In this document: positions 24,382 to 45,559 of the stretch, in pieces
Layout: every line of letters begins with the position of its first letter
How positions within the stretch are numbered: position 1 is the first letter of the stretch
IMG/VR virus record: IMGVR_UViG_3300032397_002786
Location: 1 to 46,167 of that record
Strand: one strand, 5' to 3'
DNA: 46,167 nt
Origin: a virus
Position numbers and translations under genes: made by a program
The notes under the pieces: generated by a model
What the model was told of the DNA's origin: nothing
Databases searched by the model: none
The model's input: only the letters and a program-made list of their open reading frames with translations

Positions 24382-26481
24382 ATGGGCTCTTTTGACGACC
24401 TTTCCGGCGGCACAATCATAAGTCCAGCGAGTGGAACCGGATTGCAGGGTGGTGGTAACGTTCAGGTTTCATTTTCTCGAGGATCGATTCGATACGACTC
24501 GCCGTTCCTCGACATGACAAGCACTTTCATTCCCAAAACGATTAAGGGCATTCTGAAATTTATTGCGGCATACGTGGTGAGCGATGGGTTACTCTCTCAG
24601 TGCATTACCAAGATGTCAGAGTACCCCATCACAGATTTGATTTATAAAGACGAGGATCACTCTGCTTTAAAAGATGATGAGACCATCAAAAAATGGAAGT
24701 TGATTCTTGAAGGGTCGATGAACGTTATTCGGTCACTCAAACAGGCTGGCATGGATTATCATGCGTATGGCAATTCTATCATATCAATCAACTATCCTTT
24801 CAAGAGAATGCTGACTTGCCCAAAGTGCAACAAGAAGCACACTGCGGATGGACTCAAGGCGAGATTCCAGAATTTCGAATTCAAAGCCAAGTGCCCGTTA
24901 TGTGGATTTGAAGGAAAGATGGAAGCCCATGACATGAATACCAAGGAGATCAATAAGCTTGGCATTGTTCATTGGGATCTTCTCTACATTGACATCAAAT
25001 ACAATTCGATCACCGGTGATCATTTTTATTATTACACAATCCCGTCCGACATTCAATTTGCGATCCGGCGTGGCGACATGGATATCATAAACAGCACCCG
25101 CCTTGAGATCATCAACGCTGTAAAGACACGGAAACAGCTCAAATTGATGGCGGATAATGTATTCCACTGGAAACGCCCTGGACCTCAATACATAGTCCCT
25201 GGCGAGCGCGGATGGGGCATTCCGGCCGTTATGGCGGTACTGAAGGATATCTTTCACACCAAAGTGCTGAAGAAGGGAAACGAGATGATCGCTTTCGATC
25301 ATATCGTTCCTTTCCGCCTGCTTTTCCCACAGGGTACCGGCGATGTCAGCCCGCACGCAACCATCAGCCTTTCAGATTGGCGAACCAAGATCGAACAGGA
25401 GATACGAAGATGGAGATCGGACCCGAACTATATATCCATTGTTCCGATACCGCTGGGAATGCAAAACTTCAGCGGGGATGCGCGTCTTTTGATGATTACT
25501 CCGGAAATCAGGGCGACAGAGGATACGATCATTACGGGTATGGGGATGATCCCGGAAATAATTCGCGGGGGTGCTTCGTGGTCTGGGAGCAACGTTTCAC
25601 TCCGCGTTATCGAGAACTCGTTTCTCAATCACAGGGCTGACGCTCAGGATATGCTTGATTTTATCGAGAGGAATGTATCCAATTACATGGACATTCCAAA
25701 GGTTGGAATCAAGATGGCAGACTTCAAAATGGCTGACGATCTTGAAAAGAAACGCCTTATGATTCAGATGGCGACAACCATGGGCGCCGACTCAATCATT
25801 TCAAAGCCGACAATCCAAAAAGAACTCAATATCGAGCCTGATAAAGAATATAAAAACATTCAGGAAGATTTGAAGCGCCGCGTAGAACTCAAGGTGCAAG
25901 AGGCTGAGGGTGTTGCAGAGGCTCAGGGAGCAGCATCCATCATCAATGCCCTGTATGCCGCAGATGCCCAGGTTGAGCAGCAGAACAGGCTTAAAATGAA
26001 TCAGCAAGAGAGCATGGCGAAGGATGACGTTGAAAGCCAAAAGGCCAGCGATCAAAACTCTCAAGGAGTCGCTCAAGAGGTTGCTCAGTTGGCTTCAAGT
26101 AAGGGCAAAGACCCCAATATGATTTCGTTGCCAAGAATGATTCTGCTGCTCACTCAGAGGTTCACGAAGCTTGCAAAGATCGATCCCGATGAGTTTAAGC
26201 TTAGAATGCTTGCGATGAAAAATTCAACTCCAAGTCTCTACGAAGAGATATATCGCAATCTGAAGGAAATGAATATTATCGCTGCGGATACTATGATGGG
26301 CGTTCAGACCGCAGCAACCGCAACAACCGGACAGATCCCTCAATACTCTCAGGGTGGAGTTACTGCAGAAACCCCGGCAACCGCTGTCGAGACGCCCGCA
26401 GACCCCGGGGAACTATTGGATAAGGGAAACGGTCCACTACCAGAAGCGAGGCCGCCACGGTCTCCTAAAGCGCCGATATAA
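24382..26481 (+). CDS. Portal protein with zinc-ribbon insertion
   Basis: A 699-residue protein with a portal-like arrangement: N-terminal helical wing, a segment with AYGNSIISI (about residue 128) typical of portals, a central region with a DNVFHWKRPG-type strand, and a long Gln/Glu/Lys-rich helical tail (about residues 500-600) followed by a low-complexity Thr/Pro/Ala C-terminus. Two CxxC pairs at C146/C149 and C171/C174 form a clear zinc-ribbon inside the wing, an insertion seen in some large-phage portals. Portals form the dodecameric ring through which DNA is packaged. Terminase and capsid genes are not in this window. This is the last gene of the + strand block. Confidence 0.65.
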   Translation: MGSFDDLSGGTIISPASGTGLQGGGNVQVSFSRGSIRYDSPFLDMTSTFIPKTIKGILKFIAAYVVSDGLLSQCITKMSEYPITDLIYKDEDHSALKDDETIKKWKLILEGSMNVIRSLKQAGMDYHAYGNSIISINYPFKRMLTCPKCNKKHTADGLKARFQNFEFKAKCPLCGFEGKMEAHDMNTKEINKLGIVHWDLLYIDIKYNSITGDHFYYYTIPSDIQFAIRRGDMDIINSTRLEIINAVKTRKQLKLMADNVFHWKRPGPQYIVPGERGWGIPAVMAVLKDIFHTKVLKKGNEMIAFDHIVPFRLLFPQGTGDVSPHATISLSDWRTKIEQEIRRWRSDPNYISIVPIPLGMQNFSGDARLLMITPEIRATEDTIITGMGMIPEIIRGGASWSGSNVSLRVIENSFLNHRADAQDMLDFIERNVSNYMDIPKVGIKMADFKMADDLEKKRLMIQMATTMGADSIISKPTIQKELNIEPDKEYKNIQEDLKRRVELKVQEAEGVAEAQGAASIINALYAADAQVEQQNRLKMNQQESMAKDDVESQKASDQNSQGVAQEVAQLASSKGKDPNMISLPRMILLLTQRFTKLAKIDPDEFKLRMLAMKNSTPSLYEEIYRNLKEMNIIAADTMMGVQTAATATTGQIPQYSQGGVTAETPATAVETPADPGELLDKGNGPLPEARPPRSPKAPI

Positions 26482-27836: not shown

Positions 27837-27860
27837 TAAAAAGAGGCCCCTTTCGGGGCC
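27837..27860 (-). terminator. Intrinsic terminator of the ubiquitin-like operon
   Basis: Stem of 6 G:C pairs (27845-27850 with 27855-27860). On the - strand the loop is GAAA and the stem is followed by TCTTTTT. The sequence after the T-run (AGCTATCAGGT) is shared with the terminator at 26564. Confidence 0.8.
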
Positions 27861-27882
27861 GATATTTCGACAGAAAGTCTTA

Positions 27883-28206
27883 TCACACCGTTGGGTGTTT
27901 CTGACCAGGCTGATACAGATCCTGAGTTTGAATTAACTCTAGATACGATTTTTCGAATTCCTTCACATCGTTTGTTTCAATAACTGAACCGTCGTCGCCC
28001 AATAAACGCATTACGATACCATCTGCAGGATCGACGATTACCGGTTTTGTCTGAGAGAAGATGTGTATGAGCATCGATTCTTGACGAACCAATGTCTTAG
28101 AATCCTTGACGTATTTGAACCTGATACAACTGACAGACCCCAAAGGTATAACTAGACTTTCGATCGAATTTGATCCGATGTCCAGAACATGAATTGTAGC
28201 ACCCAT
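27883..28206 (-). CDS. Small unknown protein ending the ubiquitin-like operon
   Basis: A 107-residue protein. I choose the second of two adjacent ATGs (28206) for its better spacing from AGGA; 28209 is nearly as good. An upstream in-frame start at 28257 would lie inside a strong hairpin and is unlikely. The sequence looks like a small beta-rich domain (GATIHVLDIGSNSIESLVIP, FKYVKDSKTLVR) with a helical acidic segment before a disordered C-terminus. I do not recognise it. As the last gene of the operon it could be a partner, substrate or regulator of the conjugation system (inference). Confidence 0.6.
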   Translation of the reverse strand: MGATIHVLDIGSNSIESLVIPLGSVSCIRFKYVKDSKTLVRQESMLIHIFSQTKPVIVDPADGIVMRLLGDDGSVIETNDVKEFEKSYLELIQTQDLYQPGQKHPTV

Positions 28207-28234
28207 CATTTTCCTTTTAAAACATGGAATGCAT

Positions 28235-28258
28235 GATGGGAGGGTTTCCCCTCCCATC
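28235..28258 (-). other. GAAA-capped hairpin between ubiquitin-like gene and downstream gene
   Basis: Perfect 10-bp stem (28235-28244 with 28249-28258) with a GAAA loop on the - strand. No T-run follows directly, so it is more likely an mRNA-stabilising or processing hairpin, or a leaky attenuator, than a full terminator. Confidence 0.6.
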
Positions 28259-28276
28259 CTCTATAGATCCTTTGGT

Positions 28277-28789
28277 TTATGCTGCCAGGCGGCGCAAAAA
28301 TTTAATCATTTTCGATACGAAATTGCCCTTCACAACCTGTGAGCAGATCACGCGGACCTTGCCACTTGTCGGACGAGCGAGGACGGTGTCGGCTGAAACG
28401 GCCTCATTGACACCGGAGATGCGGAACTCGTAACGGGGCTGGCCGTTGGTCAGAAAGAACTGAGCACGCTCTTCGGTCTGGAGCTGCTCAATGACGGACT
28501 TGATTGTCATGCCATCCGTTGCCGGAAGAGAAATCGAACGGCCGCCGCCAAGGCGGAAGATCTCGACTTCAAACGGGTCCAGGTTGCCCTTGACCATTTT
28601 GGCAATAACGATGTCGTCGCCATTGTACAGAACCGTATCCTTCGTAACGCGATTGGTCCGGCGCATTACTTCGCCATCAACAAACGCGCGTCCGGCCTGC
28701 GTGAAAAGTTGCCCAACGGTCGAACCGGGGGCCATTGCGAATGACTGAATTTCGGTATTGAGCTGAATAATACGAACGAAAATTTCCAT
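28277..28789 (-). CDS. Tandem ubiquitin-like (double beta-grasp) protein
   Basis: A 170-residue protein with two beta-grasp repeats: residues 1-69 and 70-156. The first has the ThiS/MoaD/ubiquitin-like pattern: strand MEIFVRIIQ, helix GSTVGQLFTQAG, then TVLYNGDDIVIAKMVKGN. The second repeats it and ends in ICSQVVKGN, so both units end in VKGN (residues 66-69 and 153-156). A basic tail of 14 residues ends in RRLAA; there is no C-terminal diglycine. The gene lies 26 bases after the E1-like gene in the same operon. It is the probable modifier of the pathway, similar in place and size class to the ubiquitin-like protein of PRTRC cassettes. It might need processing, or be joined by another chemistry. 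Start supported by AAAGGT upstream. Confidence 0.65.
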   Translation of the reverse strand: MEIFVRIIQLNTEIQSFAMAPGSTVGQLFTQAGRAFVDGEVMRRTNRVTKDTVLYNGDDIVIAKMVKGNLDPFEVEIFRLGGGRSISLPATDGMTIKSVIEQLQTEERAQFFLTNGQPRYEFRISGVNEAVSADTVLARPTSGKVRVICSQVVKGNFVSKMIKFLRRLAA

Positions 28790-28815
28790 GATACAAGATA
28801 CCTTTCGATTTGAAT

Positions 28816-29586
28816 TTACATGTTAGGCATTGCCAACACTGGTTCTCCGCCGAAACATCGCAGATAGAAAGATTCGGGATACAATGAGAACTGCACTTCG
28901 TTCCACATGTGAACCCCTTCGCCTTTTCCACCGTTAAGATTGTCAAGGCCGTAACTAATGTTGAAGTGTTGAATTACTCTTCCCACAGCCAGGCTTGCCA
29001 AAAAACTGACTGTAGAGACAATGGACTGACTGGTCCCGCACGCAGAAGCCTCGGCAACGTCATCATCATATAACGTCCTTTTCCATTCTTCGACATGGCC
29101 ACCGTTATTCGGGTTGAACGAGTAGATTCGACCTTCTCGTAATCCCATTCGCGTCTCGATCAGGAGGTCTGTCCCAAACGCGAACCTCAAGTGTTTTTCG
29201 AAGATAGCTTTGCGTGAAGACATCGTGTCTGTTAAGAGAAAAATGTATGTTGACTGGATCAAATTAGATGGCGTATTGTCGTCGACCATCTGATTGTACG
29301 CCTGGATCTCGAAGCCGCATTTCCGTAAGATTACCTCTTTCAACGCTTCGACTTTAGGCTTACCGATATGGCTTTCTTCGTAAATCTGATTGGACAGATT
29401 ATGCGCCTCAACCACATCGCCGTCAAATACTTTCAGGATTCCCTGCCCGCCGGGTGAGTCACCCCATCCCATTTGGGCAAGGAGTAGCGCAAGGTATGAA
29501 CCTGTCGCGCCGGCCCCAATCAGGGTTATTGATTTATTTTTTATTTGAGCCGGGTCCATAAGACCAAGCTGTCTTGAATAGTCCAT
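28816..29586 (-). CDS. E1/ThiF-like adenylyltransferase (ubiquitin-like activating enzyme)
   Basis: A 256-residue protein. I choose the ATG at 29586 because GAGGAG stands 7 bases upstream and it follows the JAB stop by one base. Rossmann motif GAGATG (24-29), DGDVVEAHNLSNQ (55-67; the D-x-D...N...Q nucleotide-binding signature), the conserved Lys in GKPK (K78), and LLTDTMSSR (D120, R125) are all present. C183 in SACGTSQS sits in the crossover loop where E1 enzymes carry the acceptor Cys. The zinc-binding CxxC pairs of MoeB/ThiF are absent, as in PRTRC and phage E1-like proteins. Predicted to adenylate the C-terminus of the ubiquitin-like protein and pass it to the E2-like partners. Confidence 0.85.
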   Translation of the reverse strand: MDYSRQLGLMDPAQIKNKSITLIGAGATGSYLALLLAQMGWGDSPGGQGILKVFDGDVVEAHNLSNQIYEESHIGKPKVEALKEVILRKCGFEIQAYNQMVDDNTPSNLIQSTYIFLLTDTMSSRKAIFEKHLRFAFGTDLLIETRMGLREGRIYSFNPNNGGHVEEWKRTLYDDDVAEASACGTSQSIVSTVSFLASLAVGRVIQHFNISYGLDNLNGGKGEGVHMWNEVQFSLYPESFYLRCFGGEPVLAMPNM

Positions 29587-29587
29587 T

Positions 29588-30499
29588 TTAAAACTCCTCG
29601 TATGTTCGTAGAAGTTCCTGAACATCTTTGGCGTTTTGTTCATCAAATTTATCAGGTAGGTTCAATTTTGTTTGTACAACACTACGAACACCACTATTGT
29701 TGCTAATGATTGTGGCACCATTATTCGGAAGCGGCGGCGTATAGACGCGAGTACGGTTGTATCCACCATTATAATAATCTTCGCCATACATCGTGCCTTG
29801 TGCTGTATAACTTTTGGTAGCAGGGGCGTTTTCTTTCTTAAGCGCCTCCACCTTTTCCATTATTTGTTTTTTCTCAGGATCAGATTGTATGACCTCGAGA
29901 ATCTGTACAAGCTTCAAAGTTGAAGCAAGGTCGGAGTCCAATGTGTTTTGGATACTTGTAAGTTTTGCAGTGAGCTCATCCTCCACATTGACCTCCTCTT
30001 GCTTCCACACTATGTTATCAAATTGAATTTGCTGATTGTAATCAAAAAACGAAACCGCCATAAGATAATGTTTGTTCACGATGACGCGAATAACATTATT
30101 CTTTGTCGATTGCATTCTTGTAAGGGCTTGTGTATCATCTTGGCCAGATGCAAACACGCCCATAGTGTTGTGGGAATGTGCCCACATAGCCATTTTATTA
30201 ATATCATCTTCTCTTTGGTGATTAATAAGCCACTCCATGACATCGTTCTCACCTTCCGGTGAAATTTCGCATGTGGCAGATGTTATCAATTGGTGTTTTG
30301 GATAGAATATATCCCTCACATAAAATGCGTAATTCTCTAATGTGTCGACGACTCCATAGAAACCGATTTCTTCGGAATGAGCGTCGACCATGCATTCTAT
30401 CCACTTCAACGCCTTACTGGAAAAGATAATGGTCGGGGGCATTTTCTTTTCAGGTGCAAGGATTTTGTAAGTGGCTTTTTCAGCAACATTTTTCATCAT
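29588..30499 (-). CDS. JAB/MPN (JAMM) metalloprotease
   Basis: A 303-residue protein; ATG at 30499 overlaps the upstream stop by one base (TGATG). The JAMM signature is complete: Glu in EEIGFYG (E43), then HSHNTMGVFASGQDD giving HxHx7SxxD with H108, H110, S118 and D121, which bind zinc. This family removes or trims ubiquitin-like proteins. The catalytic domain covers about residues 20-165. A helical segment (about 170-225), a Gly/Asn/Tyr-rich linker and a short helical C-terminus ending in ELLRTYEEF follow. Located between the E2-like and E1-like genes, as in PRTRC and type-6 prokaryotic ubiquitin-like cassettes. Deconjugation or maturation of the tandem modifier is the likely role. Confidence 0.85.
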   Translation of the reverse strand: MMKNVAEKATYKILAPEKKMPPTIIFSSKALKWIECMVDAHSEEIGFYGVVDTLENYAFYVRDIFYPKHQLITSATCEISPEGENDVMEWLINHQREDDINKMAMWAHSHNTMGVFASGQDDTQALTRMQSTKNNVIRVIVNKHYLMAVSFFDYNQQIQFDNIVWKQEEVNVEDELTAKLTSIQNTLDSDLASTLKLVQILEVIQSDPEKKQIMEKVEALKKENAPATKSYTAQGTMYGEDYYNGGYNRTRVYTPPLPNNGATIISNNSGVRSVVQTKLNLPDKFDEQNAKDVQELLRTYEEF

Positions 30500-31926
30500 C
30501 AAACTCCACCTCCAACCTTAGGGAAGTTGAGTATCTTGGAACCCCACGCATCATTCGGATCGGGGTTTTTGATAAACCGGATGATGAGCTCAACTACAAG
30601 AATAATATTCTTTGCAATGAGCGCTTGGTGAATTTGGGCAAACACATTGCCAAAACATATTTCACCTTCTCTTACATGGCCGCATTCCCATTTGGAATTG
30701 CCGTTGCCATTATTAATACAATATTGATGTGTCAGATTTTTGATCTTAACCGGACGACCGGCTGTCGATCCAGGATCAGTTTCACATAACAGTAGCATCA
30801 GCGAAAGGTTAATTTGCATTTCGCCAATATCAAATATTTGTGTGCGCCCGCGATCATCCGTAATCGGATCGGAACGCAAACGGTTTGTCAGAATAATCAA
30901 ATCGCCAGTATCGGCCGCGATATAAACCTTTTTGATATCGCCACCATAAGCGCTTAATTGATCGATTTGCGCTTTGACTCTCTGGACCTTTTCATTTTCA
31001 ACGACCGGCTTCATCAGAAGATTTATTTCATTCTGAATAATGAGCGATCGTCTCATAATTTTTTCGAGCTCGGCAAGTTTGGACGAAACCATTCCGGCCT
31101 GTGTCGAAACGTTGTTCCTCAATGTTTTTGCGATCTCTACCGGCACCTGTTCAGTAGGAACTTCCCCGGGCAGAACGTAATTGGCAACGGGAACTATCCC
31201 TGTACCATTAACCTCTTCTTCCTCTTCTTCTCCTATCTGCGGCTCTACTATGTTATCAATGTTAATCCTTGTAAGACGCTCTACAGCTTCAGCTACAGGC
31301 GCCGGTGGGGTAGGAGCGGTATGTACAAACGCATCGGGAAACCTTCCAGCAGGGGCACCGACACCGCCACCGCCACCGACACCGCCACCGACACCGCCAC
31401 CGCCACCGACACCGACACCGACACCGCCACCGCCACCGACACCGCCACCGACACCGCCACCGCCATCGCCACCGCCACCCGTTACAACCGCCTGATATTG
31501 ATATGTAGCACCAATCGGGCGCGGGGCGCCCATATCGACACCAACAATAACATCATTCGGCCTCTGGTGCTGATTGTACGCATTGTCCCATCCCGATTCT
31601 CTCGCTGCTGTCCTGATCTCTTCATCAGTAGTTGGCCGCAATCTCCGTCCGGTAAGCGTATCAACACCAGGCAATGTTAATGGCGCCCGCTGCTGCTGAA
31701 CTAACCGGCTGCATAAATAATCGCCAGCTCTATCTCTTGAGAAATCAAGAGGGCCAGCAACGTTCTGCAGCCTTTCTTTTGCACGTTCGGTAGCTTCGGA
31801 ATACATAAATGATAATTGCAAAGAATTATTTGCAAGTTCATTAATCCCTGTTACGAGACTAATGACATCTGGCGGCAAATTATCAAATGTAATGCCTGTT
31901 CCACTATCAATAATAATTTGATACAT
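30499..31926 (-). CDS. E2 (UBC)-like protein B with Gly-rich linker
   Basis: A 475-residue protein. Residues 1-148 are helical and unknown. Residues 150-190 are a nearly pure Gly/Val linker coded by a GC-rich microsatellite. Residues 231-238 are a Glu run, and 260-320 look coiled. About 330-470 read as a UBC fold: strands KKVYIAADTGDLIIL and IFDIGEMQINLSL, then CGHVREGEICFGN with candidate catalytic C424 and H417 in the HPN-like place, then a helix and NPDPNDAWGS, matching the PNPxDP region of E2 enzymes. The C-terminus aligns by eye with the neighbouring 646-residue protein (DIGxxxI, HVxE..GxxCxGN). Probable ubiquitin-like carrier or ligase. The E2 call rests on motifs, not a profile search. 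Confidence 0.6.
   Translation of the reverse strand: MYQIIIDSGTGITFDNLPPDVISLVTGINELANNSLQLSFMYSEATERAKERLQNVAGPLDFSRDRAGDYLCSRLVQQQRAPLTLPGVDTLTGRRLRPTTDEEIRTAARESGWDNAYNQHQRPNDVIVGVDMGAPRPIGATYQYQAVVTGGGGDGGGGVGGGVGGGGGVGVGVGGGGGVGGGVGGGGGVGAPAGRFPDAFVHTAPTPPAPVAEAVERLTRINIDNIVEPQIGEEEEEEVNGTGIVPVANYVLPGEVPTEQVPVEIAKTLRNNVSTQAGMVSSKLAELEKIMRRSLIIQNEINLLMKPVVENEKVQRVKAQIDQLSAYGGDIKKVYIAADTGDLIILTNRLRSDPITDDRGRTQIFDIGEMQINLSLMLLLCETDPGSTAGRPVKIKNLTHQYCINNGNGNSKWECGHVREGEICFGNVFAQIHQALIAKNIILVVELIIRFIKNPDPNDAWGSKILNFPKVGGGV
31355..31480. repeat. GC-rich CACCGC-type microsatellite inside the E2-like gene
   Basis: About 126 bases of imperfect CCACCG/CCACCGACA repeats in an otherwise AT-rich region. 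In the coding frame they give the Gly/Val linker at residues 150-190. Such tracts change length easily by slippage. Confidence 0.9.
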
Positions 31927-31938
31927 CCATTATTCTCC

Positions 31939-33879
31939 TTAGATTGAAATGTTAAGAGGTATGGCGTCAGCCAACATATCATCAAATTTTTGTTCTGTCT
32001 CAGACTTTTCCTCAGGCTTTTGATACAGAGGGTCATCATCCATCAACGCGGTATGCTCAGAAACTTCGGGCCACGAACTTATATATTGCCCCGCACCATC
32101 GCCAGTATTAGCGCTTTGCAGGAAGATCAATATTTGATAAACCAGATCGAAAAGGTTTCGATTTTTATAAGCTTCCGTGACACCGACTGTCAGATTCCCA
32201 TGACATGCGTGCCCGTCTTCGAAGACATGAGGGGCCTGCATACTCGGATTCATTCCCATACCTTGAAACTTTGTATTGTAAATACGAACGGTATTATTGA
32301 CATCATACTGCGTATCAAGCATTCCTATCGTTATGTGAAACATACCGATATCATGCCATTTCTTTGTTCGTTCGTCTTTAGCATACAGATTCTTGGTATA
32401 TACATGAACCGTACCGTTCTTGATGAAAACCGCATTTACTTTGTTGATCGCCATCGTATCGTTGAAATTTGTTTTGGCCTTTTCAGCCTCCTTTTCTTCA
32501 AATGATTTGATATCAAATGCCGATATCTGATCATTATAACGAGTCATTAATTTTGCAGACTCCATGGCAAGGCTGGTGTATTTTTTAAACAATGAAACCT
32601 GCTCTTCGTGAAGAGCTTTAATTCCGTCAAATACCGATCTCGCAGACTTCATTGAATACTCAACATAAGAATCCATATTATCAGAACTGAATTCTTTAAA
32701 ATATCCGCCATCAATTTCGAATAATTTTTCTCGAGAAAAAGATGTTGAGAATCGATTTCCGATTTCAAGCATAGCTCTTGAGAAAAAACTATTGGTCTCA
32801 TTGTCGGGTTGAAATAAAAGAAAGATAATGTGTTTATCTTTTACAGCCCATATTGCCCCAGTATAGAAGTCTTTAAAAATCTTGTCATACTTGAAGAATG
32901 GGCTATTTTCTCTCATTTGGTATATTTTGGCAATCCTCTCTTCTTTTTCAGCTTTAGAAAGATGATCGTCGCCATTAATCTTTTTAATCCTGTCGTTTGA
33001 TGCATTGTTTCCACACACTTTAAAAATTTTTCTCAGCTCTTTTCCAAGGCATATCGTTAATCCCGCCCTGCCTTCATAAAACCCACTGCTGGACGCTGTC
33101 GGATTAATTATTATAGTGTGCTTTGCAGTATCAACAGATTGTTCATCAGATCTTTTAAATGTCTTAATCATAATGTCAAAGTGAATTGTATAAATAATAT
33201 TTCTCCCAATCGCCTTTGACAATTCTTTTAAGTCCTCTATCCTGCCGTCTCCCATTCCCGTATCGAATACGACATAATGCCCTTCGTGTTCTATTTTCTT
33301 TAAATATCCACCAAACAGGCCTCCATCCATAAATAACAGGTTGATATACTTCTCTCCAGGAATCACCGGTTTAGGAATCTCAATCGGTATTGGAATTGGT
33401 GCTATCGATTCAACAACAGCTTGTTCATCTTCCGATGCTGGAACTTCCGCTGTTGCATTTGCAACATCATCATTGTGTTGATGTGCCCCTCTTTCTCTTC
33501 CTATACGGTGAAGTTCCTTCATTTCCAATAATTGATTTTGGATATGATCAATCAAAAATCTCGGATACTGCATATCCATAAATTTTTTGAAATATGAATG
33601 TTCTTTCACACCACCATCGGTAAGAGAGTAGAGGATTGTTTCATCTTCCCAGAACCGCATAAGTAGAAGTCTCATCCCGCTTACACATGACCCAATCTGG
33701 CTAACATGAACATCGTCTCTATCCCCATCCCATATGTGGGTGAAGAAATGATCCAGGTAAATGAAATCATCTTCATCAATGATGTGGACCATTTTCCCGT
33801 CTGGCATTGAATATGGCTCATACTCAAATCCAAGCGCAGAAGTGATCCACGTTTCTACGAACGCATACAGTGAATTCAT
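31939..33879 (-). CDS. E2 (UBC)-like protein A, PRTRC-B-like, first gene of the operon
   Basis: A 646-residue protein with GGAGGT upstream of its ATG. Residues 1-130 and 175-460 are unrecognised alpha/beta regions joined by a Pro/Glu-rich linker (about 140-172). A helical segment runs about 405-475. Residues 480-605 resemble the prokaryotic E2 family D seen in PRTRC protein B: strands NAVFIKNGTVHVYTKN and HDIGMFHITIGM, then QAPHVFEDGHACHGN with candidate catalytic C559 and H551, a helix NLFDLVYQILIFLQS, and a closing SSWPEV. The same order and spacing recur in the next gene. It leads the operon 46 bases after the motif at 33925. Probably accepts the activated modifier from the E1-like protein. 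Confidence 0.6.
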   Translation of the reverse strand: MNSLYAFVETWITSALGFEYEPYSMPDGKMVHIIDEDDFIYLDHFFTHIWDGDRDDVHVSQIGSCVSGMRLLLMRFWEDETILYSLTDGGVKEHSYFKKFMDMQYPRFLIDHIQNQLLEMKELHRIGRERGAHQHNDDVANATAEVPASEDEQAVVESIAPIPIPIEIPKPVIPGEKYINLLFMDGGLFGGYLKKIEHEGHYVVFDTGMGDGRIEDLKELSKAIGRNIIYTIHFDIMIKTFKRSDEQSVDTAKHTIIINPTASSSGFYEGRAGLTICLGKELRKIFKVCGNNASNDRIKKINGDDHLSKAEKEERIAKIYQMRENSPFFKYDKIFKDFYTGAIWAVKDKHIIFLLFQPDNETNSFFSRAMLEIGNRFSTSFSREKLFEIDGGYFKEFSSDNMDSYVEYSMKSARSVFDGIKALHEEQVSLFKKYTSLAMESAKLMTRYNDQISAFDIKSFEEKEAEKAKTNFNDTMAINKVNAVFIKNGTVHVYTKNLYAKDERTKKWHDIGMFHITIGMLDTQYDVNNTVRIYNTKFQGMGMNPSMQAPHVFEDGHACHGNLTVGVTEAYKNRNLFDLVYQILIFLQSANTGDGAGQYISSWPEVSEHTALMDDDPLYQKPEEKSETEQKFDDMLADAIPLNISI

Positions 33880-33924
33880 TACATTTCACCTCCAATTGTT
33901 TTAAATTAAAATTAAATTCCCTCT

Positions 33925-33939
33925 ATAATTGTTATTACA
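33925..33939 (-). promoter_or_regulatory. Shared upstream motif TGTAATAACAATTAT (ubiquitin-like operon)
   Basis: Read on the - strand, this 15-base motif followed by AGA lies 46 bases before the first E2-like gene. An identical 15-mer lies 22 bases before the ssDNA-binding-like gene at 45526-45540. An exact 15-base match at two gene starts in the same orientation suggests a phage promoter or operator. Confidence 0.45.
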
Positions 33940-33959
33940 TATTGGGTTTTAAAATAACG

Positions 33960-34139
33960 TCATTTTTTAATTATTGGGCCAAAGCTTCCGCACCAAGAAT
34001 CATATATTACAGGCGGAAAAATACCTTCCCATTCGCCATTTATTTTTTTTGCTACGGGAGGGTTTTTTCTACATTGAAACTCACCATCGTCGGTGACTCT
34101 TAAAAAAAAACAAATATCGCATCGTTCTTCATTTTCCAT
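33960..34139 (-). CDS. Small Cys-rich (probably metal-binding) protein
   Basis: A 59-residue protein. I choose the ATG at 34139, 7 bases after GGGGG; a TTG two codons upstream is possible. The pattern CDICxF...FQCRxNPP...WCGSF gives four cysteines in a CxxC...C...WCG arrangement, familiar from small phage and bacterial zinc or iron-sulfur proteins of unknown role. It overlaps the end of the VRR-NUC gene by 11 bases and is the last gene of that operon. Confidence 0.6.
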   Translation of the reverse strand: MENEERCDICFFLRVTDDGEFQCRKNPPVAKKINGEWEGIFPPVIYDSWCGSFGPIIKK

Positions 34140-34473
34140 CGCCAATCCCCCTTTTTAAAAAATAAGGCACAAGCCCGACATTGATTTTAAGAACAATCCA
34201 TTCATCCCATGAAAAGCATGTGAAGGCTTTACCCCCACACGCATTTATCTTTGCAATCTGAAACTTCTGAATTTCAGAAACTCTTCCCAAGACCGGTCGT
34301 TTAGTTTCAACAAAGACCTCCCCGCTTAATTCTGTTGTAAAGAATATATCGGGGATACCGTCTTCGTTGGCGCTTTCGATTTTGAAACACATACAATCTT
34401 TTTGGAGCGATCTAAGGTCTTTGAGGATCTTGCTTTGCAGAATCGACTCACGTTGAGGGGGTTTCTTTCCCAT
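34129..34473 (-). CDS. VRR-NUC family nuclease
   Basis: A 114-residue protein using the ATG at 34473; in-frame starts further upstream (up to 34509) lie inside the preceding gene. The small VRR-NUC fold of the PD-(D/E)xK superfamily is visible: RESILQSKIL helix with E9, GIPDIFF with D42, VFVETKRP with E56 and K58, and a C-terminal GGKAFTCFSWDEW strand. Phage members cut branched or structured DNA, for example during recombination or replication. It overlaps its upstream neighbour by 26 bases and sits downstream of the SNF2 helicase and HTH genes. Confidence 0.8.
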   Translation of the reverse strand: MGKKPPQRESILQSKILKDLRSLQKDCMCFKIESANEDGIPDIFFTTELSGEVFVETKRPVLGRVSEIQKFQIAKINACGGKAFTCFSWDEWIVLKINVGLVPYFLKRGIGDGK

Positions 34474-34891
34474 ACACATCATCTCCAAAATCAGCTTTAA
34501 ACTCTTCATTAAACGGAACGAATGTTTGCATCGTCACATTCGGATTTGTTGATAAATATAACCATCCGCCAGGGACTCTCATCACCGACATAGATGGGCT
34601 TAATTGGAATTCTTCTCCAATATCCATAGAGTAGATTTTTTGTGACAACTCCATGTGTTTCGACATGCGGTCCTCATCATAATTTTTTGGCTTGAAAGAA
34701 AGCATTTTCTTTTTAACTTCAGAGAATTTATCTTCCAGCCAGCATTGAATCCATTCTTCTTTGCTTTCGTAGTCCAACCCTGGGCCTATCGATTCTTCCA
34801 TATCGACTTCGACGACTTCCTGGTCGTATGCTTCGTGCGCAAGGTTGACGATCACCTGTTTCAAAAAACCCGGATTATTAAGAATGCTCAT
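34448..34891 (-). CDS. Acidic helical protein, unknown
   Basis: A 147-residue acidic protein with GGAGG before its ATG. The first 70 residues are helical; the rest contain short strands (MSVMRVPGGWLYLS). It overlaps the HTH gene by 4 bases (ATGA) and the VRR-NUC gene at its other end, so it belongs to the helicase-nuclease operon. No family is recognised. Confidence 0.65.
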   Translation of the reverse strand: MSILNNPGFLKQVIVNLAHEAYDQEVVEVDMEESIGPGLDYESKEEWIQCWLEDKFSEVKKKMLSFKPKNYDEDRMSKHMELSQKIYSMDIGEEFQLSPSMSVMRVPGGWLYLSTNPNVTMQTFVPFNEEFKADFGDDVYGKETPST

Positions 34892-35181
34892 TTGGCCTCC
34901 ATCTTTTTTATAATCCTATGCACTGTCATTCTTGTTAAATTGTACTTTTTGGCTATATCAACTTTAGGCATCATTCTCATCGAATAGTCTGTATATATCA
35001 ATTTGTTCCGATTTATTTTTGTATCGGACACTTTAAATATTGGAAGATCAAACCTCTTCCTAAAAGCAAATACATACTGCCTGGTGACGTTTAAAAATTT
35101 AGCCATCTCAACGTCGGTTTTATACGTTTTCTGTAATGTGATAAACTGCGCTTTTGAGATGGTAAAAGGAAGCTTTTTCAT
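34888..35181 (-). CDS. Small double helix-turn-helix protein
   Basis: A 97-residue basic protein with two helix-turn-helix-like segments: residues about 23-48 (VEMAKFLNVTRQYVFAFRKR) and about 73-95 (VDIAKKYNLTRMTVHRIIKK). The repeated pattern xxxIAKxxNxTRxxVxxxxKK suggests internal duplication. Start and stop overlap neighbouring genes by 4 bases each (ATGA). Probably a DNA-binding regulator or replication accessory factor; no partner can be named. Confidence 0.7.
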   Translation of the reverse strand: MKKLPFTISKAQFITLQKTYKTDVEMAKFLNVTRQYVFAFRKRFDLPIFKVSDTKINRNKLIYTDYSMRMMPKVDIAKKYNLTRMTVHRIIKKMEAK

Positions 35182-37001
35182 ATTTGAGATATACCTCTTT
35201 TAAGGATTATTTTTTCCATTGCACCTTTATTTTTAAGAACTCTTGAAAGTTCTGATAATGTCAAAGCCAAATCTTGTTTTTGCATTAATGACATTAATGC
35301 TATTTCATCAATTGTGTTCTCTGTGACAAGATCTATAACTGTCACCGTTTCTTTCTGGCCCTTCCTGTGCTGCCGGCCCTCAGCTTGATCCCTTGTAACC
35401 CACGATCTGGAGTTGCTGAAGAATACTTGATAATTGGAATATTGGATATTCTGCCCGACACCCATTTTTCTTGGGTTGGCAACCATATACAACTGTTTGG
35501 CGGATTCCCATAATCTTACTTTGCCAAATGCATCATCATCGCCATAGCATGTAAGGCAAGATCCTTTCCCAAAGGCTTTGTCAATTGCTTTCACTATTAG
35601 CTGTATCGCCATGGTGTAATTTGTCCAAATGATAATTTTTCTATCCGATGGAATGTTTATCAATGTATCAATCAATAGATTCATTTTTGGATTTTCATCC
35701 AGTATAATCGTGTTGCTTATATTCTTTTCAGATCCGGTAAGTTGATCCATCTCGTAACGTGTATTGATGTAAAACCCGGATGCTATCTGATGAAGTTTGC
35801 CCTGCAATGTCAGAGCCGTCTTAGCTCCTATTTGCCCTTCACAAGAATTGTCACAGCACCCCTGCTTATTACATTTTCCGCACATATCATCAATAACAGC
35901 AACGAGGTCCGCAGACATTTCTTTATAAAGCTTTTCCTGCCCTCCGTGCATTTTGCATGTATACTTCTGTCTTATGAGTGGTGGGAGGTCAAGGCAATCC
36001 TCTTTCTTAAACATGACCGATAGATCTCCAGTTATCTTTTTTATCTCTTCGTGGGCGCCTGGAGAGGCTATCCACACATACTGATCCGGATCTACGGCGT
36101 ACATGTATCTTCTCCTGAACTCATCATAGTTCGCATACGGGACGGTGTCGGCGCCAAGGAATCTAAATGGCATATAGAATGACATTGTGTTGTTGGCGTG
36201 AAGTGTTCCGGTAACGATATACTTGTAAGGAGAATTTTCAAAAAGCCTTATTATTGATTTTGTTTGCCGGGACTTTGGGCTTCCAAGTCTGTGCGCTTCA
36301 TCGAGAACTATCATTTCAAAAAAACCTTCTGATATATACTCCTCAAGAGCAAACATAGATTCGTAATTTGAAATGTATATATGGTACTCTTTGTTTCTCT
36401 TTTTGCTGTTAAATTTCCGGTTAAGAATTTTGTTCGCTTGTTCCGATCCATTGAGAACAACGCCCTCAAGATGAGGAACCTGAACTTCCATTTCTGCGAG
36501 AACATTCTTCTTAAGATCGGAAAGAGTGATGACAAGGGCGCGCTTAACGACGCCCTTCTCAATCCTTTTGTCGATAGCCCACAGATACGGACCAGTCTTA
36601 CAGGTTCCAGGGTCTGCGATAATCGATGCTGCGTCAGAATAATATATGGCATTAAACATTATCTTCTGGTGTGCCATCACATCAGGGTATAGTCCCCTGT
36701 AATTATAATCAAATTTGATATCTTTTTCAGAGTATTGATTCTTTATTCTCTGAATATTTATAACACGCTTTTTATTTTTTTCTACTAATTGATCGATTAT
36801 GGTTTTTGTTGAAGAGTCGCAACTTATACCATAACGATCGAATTTCGAAATTAATATCGATGCCTTGAGAGGTATCCTGATCTTATTTTGATTACGAAGT
36901 TTGTCGCCACCCATGACAGATTGCATGGACAGCAAAAGATCCATATCATCACATTCAACCACAAAGCTATTCTTGTCCAACAGAGAAATTTTTACACCCA
37001 A
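35178..37001 (-). CDS. SNF2-family DEAH helicase/translocase
   Basis: A 607-residue superfamily-2 ATPase. A TTG start at 37001 behind GGGG fits best. Motifs: Q-like region DVMAHQKIMF (about 108), an unusual Walker A DPGTCKT (130-136; Cys where Gly is usual), VITLSDLKKN (157-166), DEAH (234-237), TGTLHAN (264-270), WTNY (459-462), GVGQNIQYSNY (514-524) and motif VI RDQAEGRQHRKGQ (537-549), which is SNF2-type. A Cys cluster CGKCNKQGCC (374-383) with C387 between the lobes could bind zinc. Phage members act in replication or recombination-dependent initiation. Overlaps the upstream gene by 10 bases. Confidence 0.88.
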   Translation of the reverse strand: MGVKISLLDKNSFVVECDDMDLLLSMQSVMGGDKLRNQNKIRIPLKASILISKFDRYGISCDSSTKTIIDQLVEKNKKRVINIQRIKNQYSEKDIKFDYNYRGLYPDVMAHQKIMFNAIYYSDAASIIADPGTCKTGPYLWAIDKRIEKGVVKRALVITLSDLKKNVLAEMEVQVPHLEGVVLNGSEQANKILNRKFNSKKRNKEYHIYISNYESMFALEEYISEGFFEMIVLDEAHRLGSPKSRQTKSIIRLFENSPYKYIVTGTLHANNTMSFYMPFRFLGADTVPYANYDEFRRRYMYAVDPDQYVWIASPGAHEEIKKITGDLSVMFKKEDCLDLPPLIRQKYTCKMHGGQEKLYKEMSADLVAVIDDMCGKCNKQGCCDNSCEGQIGAKTALTLQGKLHQIASGFYINTRYEMDQLTGSEKNISNTIILDENPKMNLLIDTLINIPSDRKIIIWTNYTMAIQLIVKAIDKAFGKGSCLTCYGDDDAFGKVRLWESAKQLYMVANPRKMGVGQNIQYSNYQVFFSNSRSWVTRDQAEGRQHRKGQKETVTVIDLVTENTIDEIALMSLMQKQDLALTLSELSRVLKNKGAMEKIILKRGISQI

Positions 37002-44784: not shown

Positions 44785-45504
44785 TTAAAAGTCCTCAACC
44801 TCCGGAACGTGAGGAATGTCGGCCGGCCCATCACCATGATCCACGATTGACGCGAATGATGGTGCGGTTGCCGCCGGAATCTGCATATTGCTCTGTTGAG
44901 CCGCAGCAGTTGCGTATGTTGAGCTGTGATCGGTCGGCAAAGCTTTCGTAAATGATTTTACGGCAATGTTGCCCTTCTTGTCGTAATCGACAACTGCCAT
45001 CACTTTGTTTTTCATCTTGTGATCTTTCACAAGAATGAACGTCTTGTCTTTTTTCTCGAATGTCGGGATGAGCCACTCATCGATCCAATCGGGAGTCAAA
45101 TTGATTTTTGTGCAGCCAGTAAGCGTGATAAGCTTCGGCTTGGTAAAACTCATGATCTTGTCGGCAGTGTCCTGATCAAAGGTATCTCCGCCGGGGCACA
45201 GTGTAATGTTGGAAAAGATTGATGCGCCTTTGGGGACCTTATCGGTTCCATCGACGACCTTCAAAACCACAGTCATGTTAAGACTTTTCTTCTCATCAGA
45301 TATGTAGAGTTCGGGAAATTGACGATCTTTCCCTTCTTTAGTGAATGCGAATGTTGCCACTTCGCACAAATAATTCCCGGGAAGATCGATCGGTACGGTC
45401 TTCCTCTCTTCGCCGCTCGCGCCATCCATTGCTGCCTGAGCAGCCTTGAGCTGTTCGGATTTCTGATCGGCAAAAAACTTTCCAGCAATCTCGTTCATAA
45501 ACAC
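44785..45504 (-). CDS. ssDNA-binding-like protein with acidic C-terminus
   Basis: A 239-residue protein. Residues about 38-190 form a strand-rich, OB-like domain (GNYLCEVATFAFTKEGKDR ... LNMTVVLKVVDG ... TFILVKDHK) like the DUF669/phage SSB group. A low-complexity Ala/Gln/Ser linker leads to an acidic end (DIPHVPEVEDF), as SSBs use to recruit partner proteins. Start behind AGGAG. The 15-base motif found before the ubiquitin-like operon lies 22 bases upstream. It probably coats ssDNA in replication or recombination, next to the directionality-factor-like gene. Confidence 0.6.
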   Translation of the reverse strand: MFMNEIAGKFFADQKSEQLKAAQAAMDGASGEERKTVPIDLPGNYLCEVATFAFTKEGKDRQFPELYISDEKKSLNMTVVLKVVDGTDKVPKGASIFSNITLCPGGDTFDQDTADKIMSFTKPKLITLTGCTKINLTPDWIDEWLIPTFEKKDKTFILVKDHKMKNKVMAVVDYDKKGNIAVKSFTKALPTDHSSTYATAAAQQSNMQIPAATAPSFASIVDHGDGPADIPHVPEVEDF

Positions 45505-45525: not shown

Positions 45526-45540
45526 ATAATTGTTATTACA
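45526..45540 (-). promoter_or_regulatory. Shared upstream motif TGTAATAACAATTAT (ssDNA-binding-like gene)
   Basis: Exact 15-base match to the motif at 33925-33939, in the same orientation, followed by GGA where the other copy has AGA, 22 bases before the ATG. Confidence 0.45.
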
Positions 45541-45559
45541 AGTTTAAAATCATAATAAC

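What the first reader, a model, noticed from the sequence alone, without database searches (positions are those of the whole stretch)
27837..33940. A complete phage-encoded ubiquitin-like operon with its own promoter motif and terminator
Six - strand genes encode two E2-like proteins, a JAMM protease, an E1-like enzyme, a tandem ubiquitin-like protein and a small unknown protein. They lie between a shared upstream motif (33925-33939) and a clear terminator (27837-27860). JAMM and E1 motifs are complete. The nearest known set is the PRTRC cassette of plasmids and phages (E1/ThiF, JAB, E2-family-D, ubiquitin-like), but I know of no PRTRC-type set with two E2-like genes. Such a pathway could modify virion or host proteins or block host ubiquitin-like defences such as Bil or CBASS Cap2/Cap3. 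These roles are inference.
Basis: partly seen in the sequence, partly recalled or inferred. Interest (0 to 1): 0.93.

Follow-up and report, generated by a model that had tools for sequence, protein, structure and literature searches.

The report
Phage ubiquitin-like operon, two E2-like genes
A family of large, uncultured bacterial viruses carries a complete set of genes for attaching ubiquitin-like tags to proteins, with two E2-like enzymes and a double tag whose two halves end in the same invariant letters, KGN; the set is conserved in every related virus that could be checked, and no such virus-encoded pathway turned up in the papers I could search.

Summary
The six minus-strand genes keep the same order in 14 distinct phage lineages (18 IMG/VR contigs including the window), near the same portal-like gene. 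Every contig of this lineage with enough sequence has the operon. A 34-base promoter-like element lies upstream in 11 of 11 loci checked, and a clear terminator closes the unit.

E1 is certain (ThiF, E = 7e-22). JAMM is near certain: the motif is invariant and the protein is homologous to other phage JABs. The 170-residue protein is a tandem ubiquitin; its model's best PDB matches are linear di-ubiquitin and ISG15 (E about 6e-7). Both of its repeats end in KGN in 14 of 14 lineages, usually at the very C-terminus. The two E2-like genes are paralogues with an invariant His and Cys. Their profile matches UBE2D2 better than any of 383 decoys, Cys on Cys, but the one model made gave no UBC fold, so the fold is inferred.

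Best reading: a dedicated phage Ubl conjugation and deconjugation pathway, expressed with the replication module. Targets are unknown. It fails the curated PRTRC tests and differs from BilABCD. An ATG-like two-modifier, two-E2 scheme is the most novel reading not excluded.

The parts
33925..33958 (-). Promoter-like element GTTATT-N15-TGTAATAACAATTAT. Half-sites GTTATT/AATAAC form a dyad.
   Evidence: Present upstream of the first operon gene in 10 of 11 loci plus a degenerate copy in L018. Exact 15-mer also at 45526-45540.
31939..33879 (-). E2a: 646-aa protein; C-terminal E2-like domain (about residues 478-612) with APHVFEDGHACHGNL, catalytic Cys559 predicted; N-terminal region of unknown fold
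   Evidence: Motif conserved in all homologues, Cys invariant; profile match to UBE2D2 above all decoys; structure not informative.
30499..31926 (-). E2b: 475-aa protein; C-terminal E2-like domain (about residues 330-475) paralogous to E2a, GHVREGEICFGNVF, Cys424 predicted catalytic; low-complexity Gly/Val linker
   Evidence: hhalign E2a vs E2b 98.2%, E=3.8e-14; His417 and Cys424 invariant.
29588..30499 (-). JAMM/JAB metalloprotease, 303 aa from ATG 30499; E44, H108-S-H110-x7-S118-x2-D121
   Evidence: Residues invariant in the aligned homologues; profile vs phage JAB L006 E=7.9e-11, FpV4 6e-4; Prok-JAB only weakly.
28816..29586 (-). E1-like adenylyltransferase, 256 aa from ATG 29586; RQ, GxGATG, D55/D57, K78, D120, Cys183; the usual NLxRQ Arg is Asn
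   Evidence: Pfam ThiF E=6.6e-22; invariants; PDB profile hits UBA6, ThiF, UBA5, Cap2.
28277..28789 (-). Tandem ubiquitin-like protein, 170 aa, two beta-grasp domains each ending in KGN, plus a 14-residue tail
   Evidence: AlphaFold2 pLDDT 83.6; Foldseek PDB best hits linear di-ubiquitin, polyubiquitin, ISG15, E=5.6e-7; repeats homologous E=9.4e-9.
28583..28591 (-). First KGN (residues 67-69), end of Ubl domain 1
   Evidence: Invariant in 14 of 14 lineages.
28322..28330 (-). Second KGN (residues 154-156), end of Ubl domain 2; exact C-terminus in 9 of 14 lineages
28235..28258 (-). Perfect 10-bp hairpin GATGGGAGGG-GAAA-CCCTCCCATC between Ubl and the small gene, no T run
   Evidence: Read directly from the sequence.
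27883..28209 (-). Small protein, about 108 aa from ATG 28209, function unknown
   Evidence: Positional homologue in the other loci, weakly conserved.
27837..27860 (-). Intrinsic terminator
   Evidence: 6 G-C pairs, GAAA loop, TCTTTTT.
34129..34509 (-). VRR-NUC nuclease just upstream, conserved neighbour (outside the operon)
   Evidence: Pfam VRR_NUC E=2.7e-6; same place in most relatives.
35178..37001 (-). SNF2-type helicase, conserved upstream neighbour (outside the operon)
   Evidence: Pfam SNF2-rel_dom E=1.4e-16; synteny.
24382..26481 (+). Portal-like gene, convergent neighbour that marks the lineage (outside the operon)
   Evidence: 57-92% identical in 21 loci; weak portal PHROG match in one member.

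Best explanation
This is a self-contained ubiquitin-like conjugation and deconjugation pathway that is a core part of one large-phage lineage. Proposed cycle: the JAMM protease trims the tandem Ubl precursor after the Gly of KG-N (at the C-terminus and probably at the internal junction). The E1 adenylates the freed C-terminal Gly and takes it as a thioester, probably on Cys183. The Ubl passes to the active-site Cys of the E2-like proteins E2a (Cys559) and E2b (Cys424), which deliver it to target proteins chosen by their large N-terminal regions; no E3 gene is seen. The JAMM protease reverses the conjugates. The unit has its own promoter and terminator at the end of the replication gene block, so it is probably made early and acts on replication, host-takeover or host-defence proteins. 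Shown: gene content, order, conservation, invariant catalytic-type residues, Ubl fold (model), promoter-like motif. Inferred: every enzymatic step, the E2 fold, the cleavage sites, the timing and the targets.
For: E1: ThiF E=6.6e-22, invariant ATP-site and Cys residues. JAMM: invariant E-HxH-S-D set, homology to phage JABs. Ubl: confident model, top PDB hits linear di-ubiquitin and ISG15, repeats homologous, KGN ends in 14 of 14 lineages with a nil or 1-21 residue variable tail. E2: two paralogues with invariant His and Cys; profile vs UBE2D2 E=3.8e-4, best of 383 decoys 0.009, Cys aligned on Cys; match to an E2-like protein of a Xanthomonas jumbo phage E=9e-5. Operon conserved in 14 lineages and in every adequately sequenced portal-bearing contig. 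Own promoter-like element and terminator. JAB processing of a tandem Ubl is known for BilA/BilC (PMC11354881) and Cap3 cuts at the C-terminus of its Ubl-like substrate (PMC10097602).
Against: No UBC fold from the AlphaFold model of E2a and no Pfam E2 hit in any member; the E2 call is by sequence pattern. The HPN Asn of canonical E2s is His here. The E1 has Asn where ThiF/MoeB/E1 carry the NLxRQ Arg, so activity is not assured. Ubl ends in KG-N, not GG. No target, host or expression data.
Confidence: 0.78

Rival explanations
1. The tandem Ubl is a single ISG15/BilA-like modifier used whole. Only the C-terminal KGN is trimmed and conjugated, as in BilABCD; the internal KGN is a linker or recognition remnant, and E2b is an accessory or scaffold E2. 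(This is a rival about the details, compatible with the pathway as a whole.)
For: BilA and ISG15 are tandem Ubls used whole (PMC11354881); ISG15 and linear di-ubiquitin are the best structural matches; one E1 and one JAB as in Bil.
Against: The internal junction keeps exactly the same KGN as the C-terminus in 14 of 14 lineages and lies in a low-confidence, flexible linker; E2b keeps its Cys in every homologue seen.
Confidence: 0.4
2. The pathway is a counter-defence device: the phage JAMM and Ubl interfere with host Ubl-based immunity (Bil, CBASS Cap2/Cap3), or the phage conjugates its Ubl to host immune proteins.
For: Bacterial Ubl systems defend against phages (PMC10097602); an early location fits.
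Against: It is a core locus in the lineage rather than a variable accessory; a full E1-E2-E2 set is not needed just to strip host conjugates; no host is known.
Confidence: 0.2
3. The Ubl and E1 serve sulfur transfer (ThiS/MoaD-like) for a cofactor, tRNA or DNA modification rather than protein conjugation.
For: Single-domain E1 of ThiF size; weak sequence hits of the Ubl to ThiS and SAMP2.
Against: Two Cys-bearing E2-like genes and a JAMM protease have no place in thiamine or molybdopterin sulfur transfer; no metabolic enzymes in the operon (Iyer et al. 2006, PMC1779556, make the same argument).
Confidence: 0.08
4. The E2-like proteins are not E2 enzymes: the CxG and His motif belongs to another fold and the operon lacks conjugation activity.
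For: No UBC hit by structure or Pfam.
Against: HPN-x4-G-x-I-C register, downstream PNxxD motif, decoy test, operon context with E1, Ubl and JAMM.
Confidence: 0.12

Closest known systems
BilABCD (bacterial ISG15-like defence operon)
   Same: Tandem two-domain Ubl, separate E2, JAB/JAMM protease and E1 genes; JAB processes the Ubl C-terminus (PMC11354881).
   Different: Carried by phages as a core locus, not by bacteria as defence; two E2-like genes; a small single-domain E1 (BilD has two adenylation domains); KGN at the end of both Ubl repeats; E2 His lies before the Cys (BilB has its CEHH residues from the Cys onward). Bil sequences were not compared directly.
PRTRC cassette of plasmids (ThiF, A = JAB, B = Prok-E2_D, C = Prok_Ub)
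   Same: E2, JAB, ThiF in that order; size of the E1; a PRTRC-C example has TKG at the end of its beta-grasp domain.
   Different: ThiF model 34.6 bits vs cut-off 144.75; E2 and Ubl not matched by Prok-E2_D or Prok_Ub, which do match real PRTRC-B and -C; no C, E, F homologues seen; two E2s; tandem Ubl at the 3' end.
Phage E1 clusters of crAss001 (gp76-gp79), Flavobacterium phage FpV4, MT835544 and Xanthomonas phage PhiXhv-12
   Same: Phage-borne E1 with JAB and/or E2-like neighbour; FpV4, crAss001 and PhiXhv-12 clusters lie among DNA-replication or repair genes; E1s also lack the NLxRQ Arg.
   Different: One E2-like gene and apparently one Ubl domain each (read by eye); E1 only 27-32% identical.
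PolyUbl operon type 6e of Iyer et al. 2006
   Same: Repeated Ubl domains with E1 and JAB.
   Different: There JAB is usually fused to E1 and the E2-like domain lacks the Cys (PMC1779556).

Membership tests
E1/ThiF superfamily | ThiF domain, GxGxxG, Asp/Lys ATP-site residues | tested here: met
   Pfam ThiF E=6.6e-22; invariant residues.
E1/ThiF superfamily | NLxRQ arginine | tested here: not met
   Asn in all members aligned; also absent in four other phage E1s read here. A typical, not a required, feature of the superfamily.
JAB/JAMM metalloproteases | E...HxHx(7-8)Sx2D motif | tested here: met
JAB/JAMM metalloproteases | Match to Prok-JAB (PF14464) above cut-off | tested here: not met
   Best E 0.068 in 2 of 8 members; the homologous phage JAB of crAss001 reaches 20.4 bits vs 25.
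Ubiquitin-like beta-grasp proteins | Ubiquitin fold | tested here: met
   Model pLDDT 83.6; 80 PDB hits at E<=0.001, top ones di-ubiquitin and ISG15.
Ubiquitin-like beta-grasp proteins | C-terminal Gly exposed after processing | tested here: inconclusive
   Invariant Gly followed by Asn and 0-21 residues; cleavage not testable here.
UBC/E2 enzymes | Active-site Cys in HPN-like motif, PN..D motif downstream | tested here: met
UBC/E2 enzymes | UBC fold | tested here: inconclusive
   Low-confidence model, no PDB match.
PRTRC system | PRTRC ThiF model above cut-off | tested here: not met
   34.6 vs 144.75 bits.
PRTRC system | Prok-E2_D (B) and Prok_Ub (C) proteins | tested here: not met
   No hits; positive control met.
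BilABCD | Tandem Ubl, one E2, JAB, E1 with paired adenylation domains | tested here: not met
   Two E2 genes, 256-aa single-domain E1; Bil sequences themselves were not compared.
BilABCD | Anti-phage defence | not testable with these tools
   Needs infection assays.

The most novel reading that the evidence does not exclude
The tandem Ubl is a true polyprotein: the JAMM protease cuts after KG at both repeats and releases two different modifiers, activated by one shared E1 and handed to two dedicated E2s. This would be a phage counterpart of the eukaryotic ATG8/ATG12 pathway (one E1, two Ubls, two E2s). In the single-E2 phage clusters read here, the Ubl looks single-domain.
Probability: 0.25. 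Interest if true: 0.95.

Novelty: new variant of a known kind. Interest (0 to 1): 0.8.

Why it matters
Ubiquitin-like conjugation in bacteria is now known mainly as anti-phage defence. A complete conjugation and deconjugation pathway that is a fixed part of a phage lineage would show the opposite use: a virus modifying proteins during its own infection cycle. The two-repeat KGN precursor with two Cys-bearing E2 paralogues gives sharp, cheap predictions (cleavage after KG, E1 and E2 thioesters), and bears on how multi-modifier pathways such as ATG8/ATG12 could arise from simple prokaryotic cassettes.

Tried and rejected
Pfam, PHROGs, NCBIfam and PADLOC scans identify only the E1. Single-protein tblastn of E2a against known phages and the first viral scan found nothing; the E1 route worked. 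A genome-contig scan gave only two partial E1 hits in MAGs, not followed. AlphaFold of E2a was too weak and Foldseek returned noise. A profile of both E2 domains found no PDB relative. Sequence comparison of the Ubl and E2 with PRTRC, crAss and FpV4 counterparts was at about shuffle level, except the Xanthomonas phage E2. Considered and rejected: sulfur-carrier pathway, degenerate remnant (ruled out by conservation), PRTRC membership.

Full report
OBSERVATION. The window is a linear, probably incomplete IMG/VR virus record. Relatives found through the E1, E2a, JAB and portal-like proteins lie on contigs up to 208 kb. In 14 distinct lineages the order is E2a, E2b, JAB, E1, Ubl, small gene; one contig starts inside E2b and therefore lacks E2a. 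The small gene is weakly conserved and was recognised by profile in only some loci, by position in most others. Between the window and L003 the genes are 40-79% identical in protein, with near-saturated synonymous change (pS 0.66-0.85) and much lower nonsynonymous change (pN 0.13-0.37). This is purifying selection on all six.

CORE LOCUS. The convergent neighbour is a 690-704 aa portal-like protein (portal assignment weak). Searching with it gave 21 loci. Every one with enough adjacent sequence has the operon nearby, or about 12 kb away on the same contig in one case. Contigs without it are about 5 kb long or end 1.8 kb past the gene (L050, whose close relative L051 has the operon). Upstream neighbours (SNF2 helicase, HTH protein, VRR-NUC nuclease) are conserved too. 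So the operon sits at the 3' end of the replication and recombination block, facing the structural block.

TRANSCRIPTION UNIT. Upstream of E2a, 10 of 11 loci carry GTTATY-N15-TGNAATAACWAYWAT (with small variations) and the eleventh a degenerate copy; resampled sequence gives 0-0.05 per locus. The window has a second copy at 45526-45559, just upstream of another minus-strand gene. The GTTATT/AATAAC halves form a dyad, and the right end resembles a TATAAT box; whether it is a promoter, an operator or both is not known. A strong terminator closes the unit.

E1 AND JAMM. E1: Pfam ThiF E=6.6e-22. ATP-site residues and Cys183 are invariant. The NLxRQ arginine is Asn in all members aligned, and other phage E1s lack it too; this is unexplained. 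JAMM: all motif residues are invariant; the profile matches a fecal phage JAB (E=7.9e-11) and the FpV4 JAB (6e-4) above shuffles; crAss001 gp77 is recognised weakly as Prok-JAB.

UBL. The alignment-based model has pLDDT 83.6. The best PDB matches are linear di-ubiquitin, Naegleria polyubiquitin and ISG15 (E=5.6e-7 and up, 80 at E<=0.001). Among viral models the best is an uncultured Caudovirales protein (E=1.5e-6), and a crAss-like phage protein appears at 4e-3. The two repeats are homologous (E=9.4e-9). Both end in K-G-N in 14 of 14 lineages, in flexible stretches after the last strand. The protein ends exactly there in 9 of 14; elsewhere a 1-21 residue variable tail follows. A constant tripeptide at both repeat ends, followed by nothing or a variable tail, is the pattern of a processed polyprotein; cleavage itself is inference.

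E2a AND E2b. Their C-terminal domains are paralogues (98.2%, E=3.8e-14) sharing an invariant His, Cys-x-Gly and Asp. The E2a motif APHVFEDGHACHGNL lines up without gaps with HPNINSNGSICLDIL of UBE2D2 (P, G, C and L identical), and E2b has NPDPND where E2s have PNPDD. The joint profile scores UBE2D2 at E=3.8e-4 and UBE2N at 0.0043, against 0.009 for the best of 200 shuffles and 183 unrelated ORF products; UBE2I (0.0096) is at the decoy level. The three reference sequences were checked letter by letter against PDB entries. A Xanthomonas jumbo phage protein also matches (E=9e-5). The one AlphaFold model (pLDDT 62.6, below 50 around the Cys) gave no PDB match. The UBC fold is therefore likely but not shown.

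MECHANISM. Best-supported cycle: JAMM trimming at KG-N, E1 adenylation and thioester, transfer to E2a/E2b, delivery to targets, JAMM reversal. In three other phage lineages (crAss001, FpV4, PhiXhv-12) and in PRTRC plasmids, E1 clusters lie near replication, repair or partition genes, which favours a replication-stage or host-takeover role over virion assembly; this is inference.

KNOWN SYSTEMS. In parts list it is closest to BilABCD (tandem Ubl, E2, JAB, E1; PMC11354881), but it has two E2s, a small single-domain E1 and a different E2 motif, and it sits in phages. It fails curated PRTRC tests (positive controls). Iyer et al. 2006 (PMC1779556) described bacterial operons and phage-tail Ubl-JAB pairs but, in the parts I read, no such phage operon. 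My literature searches were limited to open-access papers, so novelty is 'not found', not 'proven'. The comparison with ATG8/ATG12 rests on my own knowledge of that pathway.

LIMITS. No host, expression, target or biochemical data. Lineage counts treat near-identical contigs as one and rest on E1, E2a, JAB or portal seeds.

Noticed in passing
window 28235-28258 (- strand): Perfect 10-bp hairpin GATGGGAGGG-GAAA-CCCTCCCATC between the Ubl and the small gene, without a T run; it may protect the upstream mRNA or set gene dosage.
   Followed up: no
window 45526-45559 (- strand): Second full copy of the 34-base promoter-like element, about 22 bases upstream of the ORF at 44785-45504; suggests a small regulon.
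   Followed up: partly
window 28816-29586; L006, L007, L008, L009: Phage E1-like proteins of five lineages lack the NLxRQ arginine of MoeB/ThiF/UBA1 (Asn or Gly instead).
   Followed up: partly
L008 2817-6693 (Xanthomonas phage PhiXhv-12): Likely Ubl ending in SGG, an 892-aa E2-like protein (HPH...GSLCLGS) and an E1, between DNA ligase and two topoisomerase genes; E1 annotated as thiamine biosynthesis protein, the other two as hypothetical.
   Followed up: partly
L009 (crAss001 gp76-gp79) and L007 (FpV4): Probable Ubl-E2-JAB-E1 clusters annotated as hypothetical, metalloprotease and thiamine biosynthesis proteins, next to primase/toprim and uracil-DNA glycosylase genes.
   Followed up: partly
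window 227-26481 (+): The structural-side proteins tested have no PHROG match at E<=0.01 and few Pfam matches, so this phage lineage looks very divergent from described phages; the 2621-aa protein has beta-helix repeats.
   Followed up: no
L006 6954-8291: Reverse transcriptase-like ORF just downstream of the E1 in fecal phage MT835544, possibly a diversity-generating retroelement (read by eye only).
   Followed up: no
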